This document shows, piece by piece, positions 4,349 to 62,710 of a DNA stretch of 64,000 bases. The stretch comes from Lysinibacillus sp. FJAT-14745 (GTDB lineage: Bacteria; Bacillota; Bacilli; Bacillales_A; Planococcaceae), in assembly GCF_001275675.1 (NCBI RefSeq), contig NZ_LITM01000007.1:12868-76867 (forward strand). Direction: 5' to 3'. Position numbers and translations under genes: made by a program. Every line of letters starts with the position of its first letter. The first letter of the stretch is position 1. Under the pieces are notes generated by a model that saw nothing but the letters and a program-made list of their open reading frames with translations, did no database searches and had not been told where the DNA came from.

Positions 4349-4616
4349 CAGAAGCATTATTGCGTCCGGATTCGGCTTTGTGCTTAGGCCAACATGATGT
4401 TTTTTGCGCGAAAGCGTAGTGCTAACGTAGCGGCAGCAAGGTGTTTTGTCTGTGCGAAAACGAAGCGACAGCAAAAGTGTTTTATCTGCGCAAAAGCGAA
4501 GCGGCAGCGGCAACAACATGATGTTGGTCACTTAGTCGTTGCCACAGGTCGTGGCGTTCTTAGACTGAGTTCCTCTATTTCAGCGGATGTTTTGACACCC
4601 ACTAGAAGAAGTTAAA
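4349..4616 (-). repeat. F1 structured intergenic repeat, copy A
   Basis: Read on the minus strand it begins at TTTAAC (4611-4616), which also contains the yugE stop codon. It ends near 4349 with CCGGACGCAATAATGC. It contains the P0 hairpin (CCAACA-TGA-TGTTGG type, here AACAACATGATGTTGG). It also holds the nested hairpin at 4531-4569: outer stem CTTAGTC/GACTGAG, inner stem GCCAC/GTGGC, loop AGGTC. Three copies of a GCGAAAGCGAAGCG-type cassette fill 4405-4510. It lies between the yugE stop codon and the yugE terminator. Translated frames here are repeat shadows, not genes. Confidence 0.8.
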
Positions 4617-19796: not shown

Positions 19797-19803
19797 AAGA
19801 AAA

Positions 19804-20022
19804 TCAATTATGCCTCGGCATAATTGCGTCCGGAATCGGCTTTGGGCCAACGTGATGTTGGTCACTCAGTCGTTACCACAGGACGTGGCGTTCTTAAACT
19901 GAGTTCCTCTATTTCAGCTGATGTTTGAACATTTGTACTTGTCGCTACGCTTTCAGTACAAAAGACATCTGTACCTGTCGCTTCGCTTTCGGTACCAAAA
20001 GACATTTGCTGAAAAAAGTTAA
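19804..20022 (-). repeat. F1 structured intergenic repeat, copy B
   Basis: The right boundary TTTAAC (20017-20022, minus strand) includes the yuiB stop codon. The left end is the palindrome ATTATGCCTCGGCATAAT and CCGGAATCGGCTTTG. Inside are P0 (CCAACGTGATGTTGG) and the nested hairpin 19864-19911: outer CTCAGTC/AACTGAG, inner ACCAC/GTGGC, loop AGGAC. Two 25-bp cassettes at 19935-19959 and 19971-19995 are closed by GTACT/AGTAC and GTACC/GGTAC. Confidence 0.85.
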
Positions 20023-32954: not shown

Positions 32955-33225
32955 CTCATCTCCATAGCGTGAGGTTGATTTCCGTTCCGGCTGGGCGCTT
33001 TGTAGCTGTCGCTTCGCTTTCGCACAGAGCAAAACTTCCTGGGGGCGTCCGATGAGCCGCTTGGGCCTACACGATGGAGGTCACGAAGGCGTTATCACAG
33101 GATGTGATGGTATTTAGCCTTCGTTCCTCTATTGCTGATCCCCAAGGAGTCGCCCAGCCTTCACTCCAATCAACTTATATCAATGTAATATGTTTTATCA
33201 GTGTCATCCCAACTTTGTTGAAAAG
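32955..33225 (+). repeat. F2 structured intergenic repeat, full copy f
   Basis: Left core CATAGCGTGAGGTTGATTTC and GGCTGGGCGCTTTG, a TAGCTGTCGCTTCGCTTTCG cassette, then GGGGGCGTCCGATGAGCCGC. P0 reads CCTACACGATGGAGG. The nested hairpin 33083-33123 has outer CGAAGGC/GCCTTCG, inner ATCAC/GTGAT and loop AGGAT. The right end is GGAGTCGCCCAGCCTTCACT..CCAATCAAC with tail. It sits upstream of the HAD gene and downstream of yutD. Confidence 0.85.
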
Positions 33226-34644: not shown

Positions 34645-34740
34645 ACGGATATCGCCCCTATCAAATATATGCAGTTTTTCTATTACTATATTCACTGTTG
34701 TCAATGTAACATAATATACGAACTCCAACAACTATAACAA

Positions 34741-34977
34741 TCAATTACGCCTCGGCATAATTGCGTCCGGAATCGGCTTTGTGCTTAGGCCTGCGTGAGG
34801 GCCAACATGATGTTGGTCACTCAGTCGTTGCCACAGGGCGTGGCGTTCCTAGACTGAGTTCCTCTATTTCAGTGGGTGTTTGGACACCTGTACCTGTCAC
34901 TACGCTTTCGGTACAAAAGACATTTGTAGCTGACGCTTCGCTTTCGCTACCCAAAATACTTGCTGAAAGAAGTTAAA
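34741..34977 (-). repeat. F1 structured intergenic repeat, full copy C
   Basis: TTTAAC boundary at 34972-34977 (minus strand), six bases after the yunB stop codon. GGTGTTTGGACACC hairpin. Two 25-bp cassettes at 34890-34914 (closed by GTACC/GGTAC) and 34926-34950 (GTAGC/GCTAC). Nested hairpin 34820-34856: outer CTCAGTC/GACTGAG, inner GCCAC/GTGGC, loop AGGGC. P0 CCAACATGATGTTGG. Palindromic end ATTACGCCTCGGCATAAT. It separates yunB from lipA. Confidence 0.87.
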
Positions 34978-40214: not shown

Positions 40215-40495
40215 TCATCATAGCGTGGGGTTGATTTCCGTTCCGGCTGGGCGCTTTGTTGCTGACGCTTCGCTTTCGCACAGAGCAAAGCTTCCTGGGG
40301 GCGTTCGATGAGCCGCTTCGCTTCGCTGCAGGGTCTCGGGGCAACAGGATGTTGGTCACGAAGGCGTTATCACAGGACGTGATGCTTTTAGCCTTCGTTC
40401 CTCTATTGCTAATCCCCAAGGAGTCGCCCAGCCTCCACTCCAATCAACTTATACCTACAATTTACGTTTTTATAAATGTCATTCTAAACTTTGGT
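40215..40495 (+). repeat. F2 structured intergenic repeat, full copy g
   Basis: Left core CATAGCGTGGGGTTGATTTC, a TTGCTGACGCTTCGCTTTCG cassette and GGGGGCGTTCGATGAGCCGC. P0 CAACAGGATGTTG. Nested hairpin 40358-40397 with outer CGAAGGC/GCCTTCG, inner ATCAC/GTGAT, loop AGGAC. Right end AAGGAGTCGCCCAGCCTCCA and tail to GATGAGTCAAAAT. It fills most of the gap between yunF and the GNAT gene. Confidence 0.85.
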
Positions 40496-48869: not shown

Positions 48870-49195
48870 CCATCATAACGTGGGGTTAATTTCCGTTCCG
48901 GCTGGGCGCTTTGTTGTTGCTGTCGCTTCGCTTTCGCACAGATAAAACATTTGCTGCCGCTACGTTAGCACTACGCTTTCGCACAGAGCAAAGCTTCCTA
49001 GGGGCGTCCGATGAGCCGCTTCGCTGGTCTCGGGCCAACAGGATGTTGGTCACGAAGGCGTTATCACAGGACGTGATGGTTTTAGCCTTCGTTCCTCTAT
49101 CGCTGATCCCCAAGGAGTCGCCCAGCCTCCACTCCAATCAACCTATATACACGACATTCGTTTTAACCAATGATATCTCAAACTTTCGATAATGA
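48870..49195 (+). repeat. F2 structured intergenic repeat, full copy h
   Basis: Left core CATAACGTGGGGTTAATTTC, two cassettes (TGTCGCTTCGCTTTCGCACA and the GCTACGTTAGCACTACGCTT variant), GGGGCGTCCGATGAGCCGCT. P0 CCAACAGGATGTTGG. Nested hairpin 49051-49091: outer CGAAGGC/GCCTTCG, inner ATCAC/GTGAT, loop AGGAC. Right end GGAGTCGCCCAGCCTCCACT and tail to GATAATGAGTCAAAAT. Confidence 0.85.
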
Positions 49196-49219: not shown

Positions 49220-49476
49220 CAGGCGTGTTGATTAGGAAAAAATAAGTTTATTATTGAGCGATAAAAGGATTTTTTCGTTACCACTTTGCCAATATATTTC
49301 CATTTTAACTGATTGTAGCGTAGGGCTACTCGACTCCCGCGGGAAAGCGAGACAGACGAGACCCTGCACGGAGCGAAGCGGAGGAAGCGGCTCGACGCTC
49401 GCCCGCAGGAAAGCGAGTAGCCCGTAGCGGAAATCAGCCTCTTTGAATGTATAAAAATGGTTAATCAACACACCTG
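49220..49476. mobile_element. MITE-like element with 15-bp inverted ends and 9-bp target duplication
   Basis: CAGGCGTGTTGATTA (49220-49234) and TAATCAACACACCTG (49462-49476) are inverted repeats with one mismatch. They are immediately bordered by the direct repeat AAAAGATGA at 49211-49219 and 49477-49485. The interior (257 bp in all) has no transposase. It contains a GC-rich palindromic block (49326-49426) bounded by GGGCTACTCG / CGAGTAGCCC, similar in style to F2. Confidence 0.75.
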
Positions 49477-52364: not shown

Positions 52365-52823
52365 TTTAACTTCTTTCAGCAAAAGTCTCCCACCTCTATA
52401 GGTGATGAGATGAATGCGGATTTAAGCTACTTTACAACGGTTGTCCAAACACCAGCTGAAATAGAGGAACTCAGTCTAAGAACGCCACGTCCTGTGGCAA
52501 TTTATCTGTGCGAAAGCGAAGCGACAGCAACACACGACTGAGTAACCAACATCGGTGCTGCTGACGCTGCGTTAGCACTACGCTTTCGCGCAAAAAACAT
52601 TTGTTGGCCCAAAGCCTCCGGCGGATGTCACAGAATCGGAAAGGAGTTCTTAGGGGATGTTAGCCTAAAACCATCGCATCCATGCGATAACGGTTAAATG
52701 ACCTGCATCGGTAAAAGCGCCACGTCCTGTGGCATTACCGAAATGACCAACATCGTGTTGACCCTCACGCAGGCCTAAGCACAAAGCCGATTCCGGACGC
52801 ATTTATGCCGAGGCATAATTGAT
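52365..52823 (+). repeat. F1 structured intergenic repeat, long copy D
   Basis: TTTAAC boundary at 52365-52370 and palindromic end TTATGCCGAGGCATAA with TTGAT at 52823. It contains three nested hairpins. The first (about 52461-52535) has the GCGAAAGCGAAGCGACAGCA cassette inserted between the outer and inner stems. The second and third (52672-52750) have outer stems TCGGTAA/TTACCGA and TTAGCC/GGTTAA, with inner stems GCCAC/GTGGC and ATCGCAT/ATGCGAT. This copy lies in the opposite orientation to the adjacent operon, with its palindromic end at the stop codon. Confidence 0.83.
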
Positions 52824-62271: not shown

Positions 62272-62547
62272 ATCAATTATGCCGAGGCATAATTGCGCCC
62301 TGAATCGGCTTTGTGCTTAGGCCTGCACGAGGGCCAACACGATGTCGGTCATTTCGGTAATGCCACAGGACGTGGCGTTATTACCGAAGGCTAACACGAT
62401 GTTGGTCATTTCGGTAATGCCACAGGACGTGGCGCTTTTACCGATGCAGGTCAGTTAGCCGTTATCTCATGGATGCAATGATTTTAGGCTAACATCCTTT
62501 AAGCACTCCTTTCCGATTCCGTGACACCCGCTGAAAGAAGTTAAAAA
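62272..62547 (-). repeat. F1 structured intergenic repeat, copy E, in the metN leader
   Basis: Its TTTAAC boundary (62542-62547) is formed by the poly-T of the riboswitch terminator. It contains three nested hairpins: 62351-62391 with outer TTCGGTAAT/ATTACCGAA; 62411-62449 with outer TCGGTAA/TTACCGA; and 62454-62494 with outer GTTAGCC/GGCTAAC. The first two have the inner stem GCCAC/GTGGC and loop AGGAC. The palindromic end TTATGCCGAGGCATAA lies 30 bp before the metN start codon. Confidence 0.85.
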
Positions 62548-62601: not shown

Positions 62602-62710
62602 TTCTCTCATCTTTCAAAGATAAATCTTTGAGTGATTTGGCACCTTTTCACGATTGTGATGGTTGCCGGGCTTCATAGGGCACTTCCCTCCGCCGCTCTT
62701 TATAAGAGTT
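62602..62710 (-). promoter_or_regulatory. SAM-I (S-box) riboswitch aptamer of metNPQ
   Basis: On the minus strand: CTCTTATAAAGAGCGGCGGA, then GGGA, GTGCCC, TATGAAGCCCGGCAACC, GGTGCCAAATC, and the closing GATGAGAG. All conserved S-box blocks are in order, and P1 forms from CTCTTAT and ATGAGAG. S-adenosylmethionine binding is expected to favour the downstream terminator and shut off methionine import. Confidence 0.95.

What the first reader, a model, noticed from the sequence alone, without database searches (positions are those of the whole stretch)
62334..62495. Shared nested hairpin in two repeat families with compensating stem changes
Every full F1 and F2 copy holds a unit of the form GGTCA - outer stem - GTT - inner stem - loop AGGAC - inner stem - G(N)TTnTTA - outer stem. 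The unpaired parts stay nearly constant while the stems differ and still pair. Outer stems: CGAAGGC/GCCTTCG (33083, 40358, 49051), CTCAGTC/GACTGAG (34820), CTTAGTC/GACTGAG with a wobble (4531), TTCGGTAAT/ATTACCGAA (62351), GTTAGCC/GGCTAAC (62454). Inner stems: ATCAC/GTGAT, GCCAC/GTGGC, ATCGCAT/ATGCGAT. A preceding hairpin P0 also covaries (CCAACA/TGTTGG, CCTACA/TGGAGG). This pattern means the fold, not the sequence, is being kept. The unit could be an RNA or single-stranded DNA structure recognised by a protein. I know of no described element with this layout.
Basis: seen in the sequence. Interest (0 to 1): 0.85.

Follow-up and report, generated by a model that had tools for sequence, protein, structure and literature searches.

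The report
Hairpin cassette riding in mini-transposons
A small double-hairpin sequence filed as a bacterial small RNA is a widely shared cassette that sits inside several unrelated kinds of miniature jumping DNA and, in other species, between ribosomal and transfer RNA genes; its folded shape is kept while its letters change.

Summary
Across 57 units from many genomes 92% of stem cells pair, against 63% in shuffles; covariation score 0.728 against 0.197.

The setting is new. The own genome has at least 147 copies; 8 of 31 congeners show none. Copies sit inside three kinds of miniature transposon: F1 with ISL3-like ends, F3 with 9-bp target duplications (11 of 16), and F2, inserted after TTTAA (38 of 51). 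The finding's units belong to a 269-bp F2 element upstream of a metN-like gene; 15 of 19 relatives with both flanks are empty there. The cassette is optional and is inverted inside its carriers in other species.

In other Bacilli it also fills tRNA/rRNA spacers, often flush with mature 5' ends, and once an RNase P RNA loop. In a pattern sample not chosen for this, 11 of 130 lie there, all sense. Its stems show no clear G-U over A-C preference, unlike tRNA stems. What reads or moves it is unknown.

The parts
62272..62540 (-). F2-type miniature mobile element carrying the finding's units: starts CTTCTTTCAGC, ends in a hairpin CAATTATGCC...GGCATAATTGAT
   Evidence: Sequence; empty site in 15 of 19 relative loci that hold both flanks, other derivatives at the same place in the other 4; gap of 268 nt in the window against -1 nt in G005 and G001
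62541..62545 (-). TTTAA target at the left junction, at the end of the T-run downstream of a CCCCTTC...GAAGGGG inverted repeat (terminator-like by eye only; the tool's scan, which allows loops of 3-8, found none)
   Evidence: (TTTAA in 38 of 51 F2 left junctions)
62441..62503 (-). Unit A (RF01690 unit): P1 GTTAGCC 62493-62487 / GGCTAAC 62460-62454, degenerate P2, P3 5' arm CCTGC 62450-62446, P3 3' arm GCAGG displaced to 62326-62322
62391..62444 (-). Unit B inside the P3 loop of unit A: P1 TCGGTAA/TTACCGA, P2 GCCAC-GTCCT-GTGGC, P3 CCAAC-ATCGT-GTTAG (imperfect)
   Evidence: Read from sequence; not reported by Rfam as a separate hit
62334..62388 (-). Unit C: P1 TTCGGTAAT/ATTACCGAA, P2 GCCAC-GTCCT-GTGGC, P3 CCGAC-ATCGT-GTTGG
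   Evidence: (62334-62389, 37.6 bits)
4513..4579 (-). RF01690 cassette in an F2-type element (left flank TTTAACTTCTTC by eye)
19847..19913 (-). RF01690 cassette in an F2-type element (about 19802-20022)
33066..33133 (-). RF01690 cassette in an F1-type (ISL3-like ends) element
34802..34868 (-). RF01690 cassette in an F2-type element starting at about 34740 (+ coordinates)
40341..40407 (-). RF01690 cassette in an F1-type element
49035..49101 (-). RF01690 cassette in an F1-type element
52460..52711 (+). Two further cassette units (52460-52516 and 52649-52711) in an F2-type element at about 52366-52823
   Evidence: 457 nt present in the window, 2 nt in G018
62604..62708 (-). SAM riboswitch upstream of the element
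   Evidence: Rfam RF00162, 86 bits
61222..62250 (-). metN-like gene whose leader holds the element; start codon 21 nt past the element's end
   Evidence: NCBIfam TIGR02314 MetN E 8.6e-110, 367 bits, below that model's cut-off of 499.7

Best explanation
The units are copies of one portable, self-folding cassette of about 67 nt (RF01690: P1 enclosing P2 with loop RTCCT, then P3). In this genome, whose nearest named look-alikes are Lysinibacillus, it spreads mainly as internal cargo of short non-autonomous transposable elements of at least three kinds, F1, F2 and F3. SHOWN: identity, covariation, carriers with their ends and target duplications, empty sites, optional presence, inversion within carriers, and occurrence in tRNA/rRNA spacers and in one RNase P RNA of other Bacilli. 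INFERRED: the carriers are moved in trans (F1 by ISL3-family transposases with similar ends, F2 by an unidentified single-strand type enzyme, F3 by an unidentified TIR enzyme). The cassette persists because it folds on its own into compact hairpins, almost always Watson-Crick, with fixed loops. That makes it tolerable in transcribed non-coding DNA and, most likely, a binding site for a common host nucleic-acid-binding protein that reads the two RTCCT loops. The finding's copy is such an element, dropped between a SAM riboswitch and metN.
For: RF01690 identity. At least 147 copies in the own genome, 146 over the cut-off, with 150 of 655 candidates scored; 0 to at least 69 matches in 31 congeners, 8 with none at E 0.001 (stricter filters, 69 candidates scored each). 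Covariation. F3: 9-bp duplication in 11 of 16 elements, 0.00 expected. F1 ends resemble the inverted repeats of ISL3 elements in the own genome and relatives; repeats found at 6 of 8 ISL3 loci read (of 16 fetched), perfect 8-bp duplications at 3. F2: TTTAA in 38 of 51 left junctions, no duplication. Empty sites. In own-genome loci that I had chosen around RF01690 hits, 37 of 49 F2, 54 of 66 F1 and 12 of 16 F3 elements hold the cassette and the rest do not. Cassette inverted relative to both flanks in three carrier types. Embedded in several other repeat families of named genera.
Against: No transposase with F2 or F3 ends was found; the Y1 elements read in relatives have other ends. Y1 presence does not follow copy number. 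ISL3 transposase was not found in two high-copy genomes, G018 and G025. Orientation leans with host genes: 72 of 89 copies between co-directional genes (crude ORF calls). In a sample picked for stable RNAs it is 95 sense to 2 antisense, and in the pattern sample 11 of 11 are sense. A passive passenger would not need this, although leading-strand orientation would explain part of it. No protein partner was shown. The cassette's own boundaries and its own movement were not demonstrated.
Confidence: 0.6

Rival explanations
1. RNA-level element: in stable-RNA operons the transcribed cassette acts as a processing or antitermination signal just upstream of mature 5' ends; MITEs captured it because it makes their transcripts harmless.
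For: Of 105 distinct modules in 65 loci that I mostly picked for stable-RNA neighbours, 97 lie by a tRNA/rRNA, 95 sense and 2 antisense; of 61 with a downstream tRNA within 300 nt, 35 end within 3 nt of it (small overlaps included), none 4-20 nt before it (many are paralogous, 15 of the 35 before tRNA-Gly). In a pattern sample not picked for this, 11 of 130 modules are near stable RNA genes, all sense, several flush with tRNA, 5S or 16S. It abuts 5S in own-genus genomes and 16S in G049 and G738, and sits sense-strand in a helix loop of RNase P RNA in G054. Copies lean with gene direction.
Against: No clear wobble preference: G-U 20 against A-C 26 in A1 (15 against 9 without the three outermost pairs), 18 against 37 in 99 own copies (14 against 30), 29 against 54 in a mostly stable-RNA set (14 against 13), while tRNA stems show 144 against 10. 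In 3 of 8 rrn operons of G049 only. Antisense beside 16S in G575 and G649. 119 of 130 pattern-sample modules are not near a stable RNA gene. Inverted in carriers.
Confidence: 0.3
2. CsrA-binding RNA made from the opposite strand (AGGAC/AGGAY hairpin loops), a sponge for CsrA.
For: Published proposal from motif matches to the reverse complement (PMC4333381, passages). The + strand loops are mostly AGGAY.
Against: csrA is in all 23 own-genus genomes searched, including those without copies. Where the transcribed strand is known it is the other one: 95 of 97 and 11 of 11. The P1 helix and the CTA part are conserved beyond what a CsrA hairpin needs.
Confidence: 0.07
3. REP-like element recognised as a single-stranded DNA hairpin by a Y1 (RAYT-type) transposase.
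For: Hairpins with fixed loops and nearly strict Watson-Crick stems; weak leading-strand lean between convergent or divergent genes, 25 to 16; F2 targets TTTAA without duplication.
Against: No PF01797 match in G003, G013 or G015, which have at least 69, 19 and at least 69 copies; five matches in G020, which has none. Own genome has only two partial matches.
Confidence: 0.1
4. A cis-regulatory part of the metN operon, working with the SAM riboswitch.
For: It sits between the SAM riboswitch and metN on the transcribed strand.
Against: 15 of 19 relatives lack it at this site; well over a hundred further copies of the cassette are scattered over the genome.
Confidence: 0.03

Closest known systems
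Rfam RF01690 Bacillaceae-1 RNA
   Same: Same secondary structure and loops; over the gathering score at 8 places in the window
   Different: Filed as a stand-alone sRNA ('Gene; sRNA'). Here it is an internal cassette of several MITE families and, elsewhere, of RNA-operon spacers
BOX elements of Streptococcus pneumoniae and S. suis (boxA-(boxB)n-boxC)
   Same: Modular, MITE-like, an optional and repeatable inner module, the same inner module between different end modules in S. suis, leading-strand lean of 60.8% (PMC3049150, passages)
   Different: Here the inner module is shared over many genera (37 of 145 sampled in the class have RF01690) and by carriers with TIR and non-TIR ends, and it also sits in tRNA/rRNA spacers; its stems covary strongly
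MITEs of ISL3-family elements
   Same: F1 ends resemble the ISL3 inverted repeats
   Different: The cargo cassette is shared with unrelated element types
IS200/IS605-derived palindromic elements
   Same: F2 has a fixed target (TTTAA) at its left end, no target duplication and a terminal hairpin
   Different: No Y1 transposase with these ends was found
Mobile spacer loops / intervening sequences in rRNA operons (recalled, no call)
   Same: Patchy between operons of one genome
   Different: A defined covarying motif, also within MITEs

Membership tests
Rfam RF01690 Bacillaceae-1 | Covariance-model score at or above gathering (35 bits) | tested here: met
   8 window hits, 35.3-79.3 bits
Rfam RF01690 Bacillaceae-1 | Expressed as a discrete small RNA | not testable with these tools
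   No RNA-seq at hand
MITE (F3 carrier) | Terminal inverted repeats and fixed-length target duplication | tested here: met
   TIR CAGGCGTGTTGATTA; 9-bp duplication in 11 of 16
MITE of ISL3 family (F1 carrier) | Ends match an autonomous IS in the same genome | tested here: met
   GGCTCATCACCAAAA / GGCTCATCACCATAAC repeats around ISL3 transposase genes; similar ends of F1 copies, compared by eye
MITE of ISL3 family (F1 carrier) | 8-bp target duplication at the MITE itself | tested here: inconclusive
   Seen by eye at C4:35499 only; not counted systematically
IS200/IS605-type element (F2 carrier) | Fixed target sequence at the left end, no duplication | tested here: met
   TTTAA in 38 of 51; empty sites
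IS200/IS605-type element (F2 carrier) | Y1 transposase element with the same ends | tested here: not met
   Eight Y1 loci read (five of the own genus), other ends
REP/RAYT element | Copy number goes with a RAYT/Y1 gene | tested here: not met
CsrA-sponge RNA | Binds CsrA | not testable with these tools
   csrA presence tested only
BOX-like modular repeat | Optional or repeated inner module between end modules | tested here: met
   Cassette absent from 12 of 49 F2, 12 of 66 F1 and 4 of 16 F3 elements; two or more units in some elements

The most novel reading that the evidence does not exclude
The cassette is itself a mobile unit, perhaps the smallest known. It moves as a folded single strand between MITEs, rRNA and tRNA spacers and even an RNase P loop, in either orientation inside carriers, and joins flush to mature 5' ends of tRNA, 5S and 16S, possibly through an RNA or cDNA intermediate.
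Probability: 0.18. Interest if true: 0.85.

Novelty: new variant of a known kind. Interest (0 to 1): 0.58.

Why it matters
An Rfam 'small RNA' family turns out, at least in this genus and several other Bacillaceae, to be a structural cassette amplified by mobile elements, so its entries are not independent RNA genes. One strongly covarying hairpin pair shared by unrelated MITEs, by tRNA/rRNA spacers and by an RNase P RNA points to one common reader. The G-U against A-C count is a cheap test of RNA versus DNA constraint that can be applied to other 'RNA' families found by covariation. The recurrent flush fit to mature tRNA, 5S and 16S 5' ends makes an RNA-templated origin testable.

Tried and rejected
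Stand-alone sRNA: rejected as the main reading, because copies are cargo of carriers and range from 0 to many in one genus. REP/Y1: no correlation. CsrA: csrA is in every own-genus genome searched. Pseudoknot between the upstream AGGA and the UCCU loop: considered and dropped, because families without GGA keep the loop (by eye). 'Sense strand only': dropped after L241 and L244. 'Home is the stable-RNA operon': my rich sample (97 of 105) was selected for it. A first look at 80 of the 118 stretches of the pattern scan gave 4 of 88; all 118 gave 11 of 130. So I do not claim it as the rule. In one search two short fragments of the 130 hits were left out. A regex count of cassettes per carrier missed degenerate units, three of them in the window, and was replaced. 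An ARAGORN bracket count as tRNA control was biased because mainly standard pairs are bracketed; it was redone by position. tRNAs are under stronger selection than repeats, so that contrast is indicative only. Misaligned cells add to both G-U and A-C. In own copies part of the A-C cells come from broken P3 stems (without P3: A-C 19, G-U 9), and most of the A-C excess comes from the two outermost P1 pairs; without the outermost pairs A1 leans to G-U (15 to 9), which is against a pure DNA reading. Plasmid searches: no match. Inversion of the cassette could also come from recombination between the inverted arms of a carrier, so it does not by itself prove separate mobility. Literature: 'Bacillaceae-1' gave 11 papers, several about gut bacteria, and 'RF01690' 5; I read passages of PMC2864571, PMC4333381, PMC9029176 and PMC8208703. 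None of those passages describes MITEs or tRNA spacers; the other listed papers were seen as listings only. Two further searches found nothing relevant in their listings. From PMC3049150 I read passages. That Bacillaceae-1 has been reported beside rRNA operons is recalled; no call shows it. The helix name P12 for the RNase P RNA insertion is recalled too.

Full report
WHAT IT IS. Rfam places eight RF01690 (Bacillaceae-1) matches in the window, all on the - strand, including 62334-62389 and 62419-62503. Unit A (62441-62503) has its P3 loop occupied by units B and C (62331-62441), so the finding's stretch is one nested array. A model of 57 units built here also finds + strand units at 52460-52516 and 52649-52711.

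THE FOLD IS KEPT. On a MAFFT alignment of 57 units that I chose from own-genome, own-genus and other-genus loci (A1), 92.2% of cells pair against 63.2% in shuffles, 274 cells are changed on both sides against 78, and the covariation score is 0.728 against 0.197, with 0 of 500 shuffles as high; slid partners give at most 0.133. 15 of 17 pairs change on both sides, a count that 61 of 500 shuffles also reach. The loop letters TC..TG and the CTA beside P1 are nearly constant.

IT IS CARGO. The own genome has at least 147 copies, 146 over the cut-off (150 of 655 candidates scored). Among 31 congeners, 8 show none and 10 have 54 or more (at most 69 candidates scored each, stricter filters). 132 of the 147 lie in stretches that I fetched. 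Around them are longer repeats. F3 has inverted ends CAGGCGTGTTGATTA and a 9-bp duplication in 11 of 16 elements, none expected from swapped flanks. F1 ends resemble the inverted repeats of ISL3-family insertion sequences in the own genome and relatives (repeats found at 6 of the 8 ISL3 loci that I read, out of 16 fetched, perfect 8-bp duplications at 3). F2 starts CTTCTTTCAGC after TTTAA in 38 of 51 cases and ends in the hairpin CAATTATGCC-GAG-GGCATAATTGAT with no duplication. The cassette is optional: 37 of 49 F2, 54 of 66 F1 and 12 of 16 F3 elements hold it. These stretches were chosen around RF01690 hits, so the share is biased upward.

THE FINDING'S LOCUS. The element 62272-62540 stands between a SAM riboswitch (62604-62708) and a metN-like gene. 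Of 19 relative loci with both flanks, 15 are empty; two further loci examined lacked the flanks. Four (G003, G018, G007, G010) hold shorter or different derivatives at the same place; the one in G010 has F2 ends but no cassette. Elsewhere in the window: the F2 element at 52366-52823 faces 2 nt in G018; at 34740 about 261 nt face 27 nt in G005 and G001 while G018 has the element; at 19847 G018 has it; the F1 element at 33066 faces 11 nt in G003, where an ISL3-like end remains. The 40341 and 49035 loci are tangled, and the module at 4513 found no syntenic pair.

OTHER CONTEXTS. In a sample of the class, 82 of 398 genomes and 37 of 145 genera have RF01690; in a sample of the phylum, 6 of 398 genomes. 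In several genera it lies in stable-RNA operons: flush to the 16S 5' end in 3 of 8 operons of G049, where four others that I read have another hairpin; flush to 5S in G019, G002, G012, G574 and G604; in tRNA arrays; and in a helix loop of RNase P RNA in G054. In 65 loci mostly chosen for this, 97 of 105 distinct modules have a tRNA or rRNA near, 95 sense and 2 antisense; 35 of the 61 with a tRNA downstream within 300 nt end within 3 nt of it and none 4-20 nt before it. Many of these are paralogous (15 of the 35 stand before tRNA-Gly). An exact-pattern scan of named genomes, not chosen for context, gave 118 stretches with 130 modules; 11 are near stable RNA genes, all sense, and most of the 11 stand within a few nt of a tRNA, 5S or 16S start (Bacillus paralicheniformis, B. 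changyiensis, Tumebacillus avium, Salsuginibacillus kocurii, Lysinibacillus telephonicus, and 12 nt away in Aquibacillus koreensis). Among the others I read the flanks of a part only: there the cassette stands inside other interspersed repeats, for instance in Halobacillus, Sporosarcina, Cytobacillus, Rummeliibacillus and Lentibacillus. Own-genus 16S leaders that I read lack it.

STRAND. RNA stems tolerate G-U better than A-C. The cassette shows 20 against 26 (A1), 37 against 36 (A2) and 18 against 37 (99 distinct own copies), and 29 against 54 in the stable-RNA-rich set. Without the three outermost pairs the counts are 15 to 9 (A1), 14 to 13 (stable-RNA set) and 14 to 30 (own copies). tRNA stems from fetched loci show 144 against 10. 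Within carriers the cassette is inverted in other species: F1 in G013, F2 in G483, and a third repeat between Bacillus chungangensis and Cytobacillus citreus. Against this stands the orientation bias: 72 of 89 copies between co-directional genes run with the genes (p 3e-9). The two factors could not be parted, because 76 of those 89 gene pairs are on the strand that I took as leading; between convergent or divergent genes the count is 25 leading to 16 lagging (crude ORF calls).

MECHANISM. Shown: a covarying cassette carried by elements of three kinds, with empty sites and target duplications. Inferred: carriers moved in trans; the cassette tolerated because it folds by itself; a common reader of the two RTCCT loops. 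Not shown: any reader, any transcript, any movement of the cassette by itself.

NOVELTY. The motif is known (RF01690). The MITE setting, the tRNA/rRNA/RNase P settings, the inversion and the missing wobble preference are not in the passages I read.

Noticed in passing
window 49220-49476: An F3-type MITE without the cassette, with 9-bp duplication AAAAGATGA, next to the F1 copy at 49035.
   Followed up: partly
window 52366-52823 (+): An F2 element on the + strand with two cassette units; G018 has 2 nt there instead of 457.
   Followed up: partly
L210 1453-1607 and L221 1464-1600: In tRNA arrays of G046 the cassette is followed by a second copy of the 3' end of the preceding tRNA (about 20 nt to CCA), like a long target duplication or a cDNA-type joint.
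   Followed up: no
own-genome copies, e.g. G000:C26:144364 and G000:C29:178498: Other repeat units are inserted in the P3 loop of some cassettes, mostly a 40-nt unit (GCTGACGCTACG...CAAAAAACATC); 6 cases of 121 by a strict test, with 15 more where the arm was not found. Bacillus chungangensis and Cytobacillus copies show other inserts in the same loop.
   Followed up: partly
L250 (G544): Direct arrays of related hairpin units around the cassette.
   Followed up: no
L241 and L244: Cassette flush to the 16S 5' end but on the opposite strand, in two genomes of one genus (G575, G649) in which two others (G049, G738) have it in sense.
   Followed up: partly
23S-5S spacers of G019, G002, G020 (L256-L285): Spacers between operons of one genome differ by whole hairpin blocks; only some operons of G019 and G002 carry the cassette, one of G002 in decayed form.
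   Followed up: partly
L230 1239-1723: RNase P class A RNA with a cassette inserted in the loop of one helix.
   Followed up: yes
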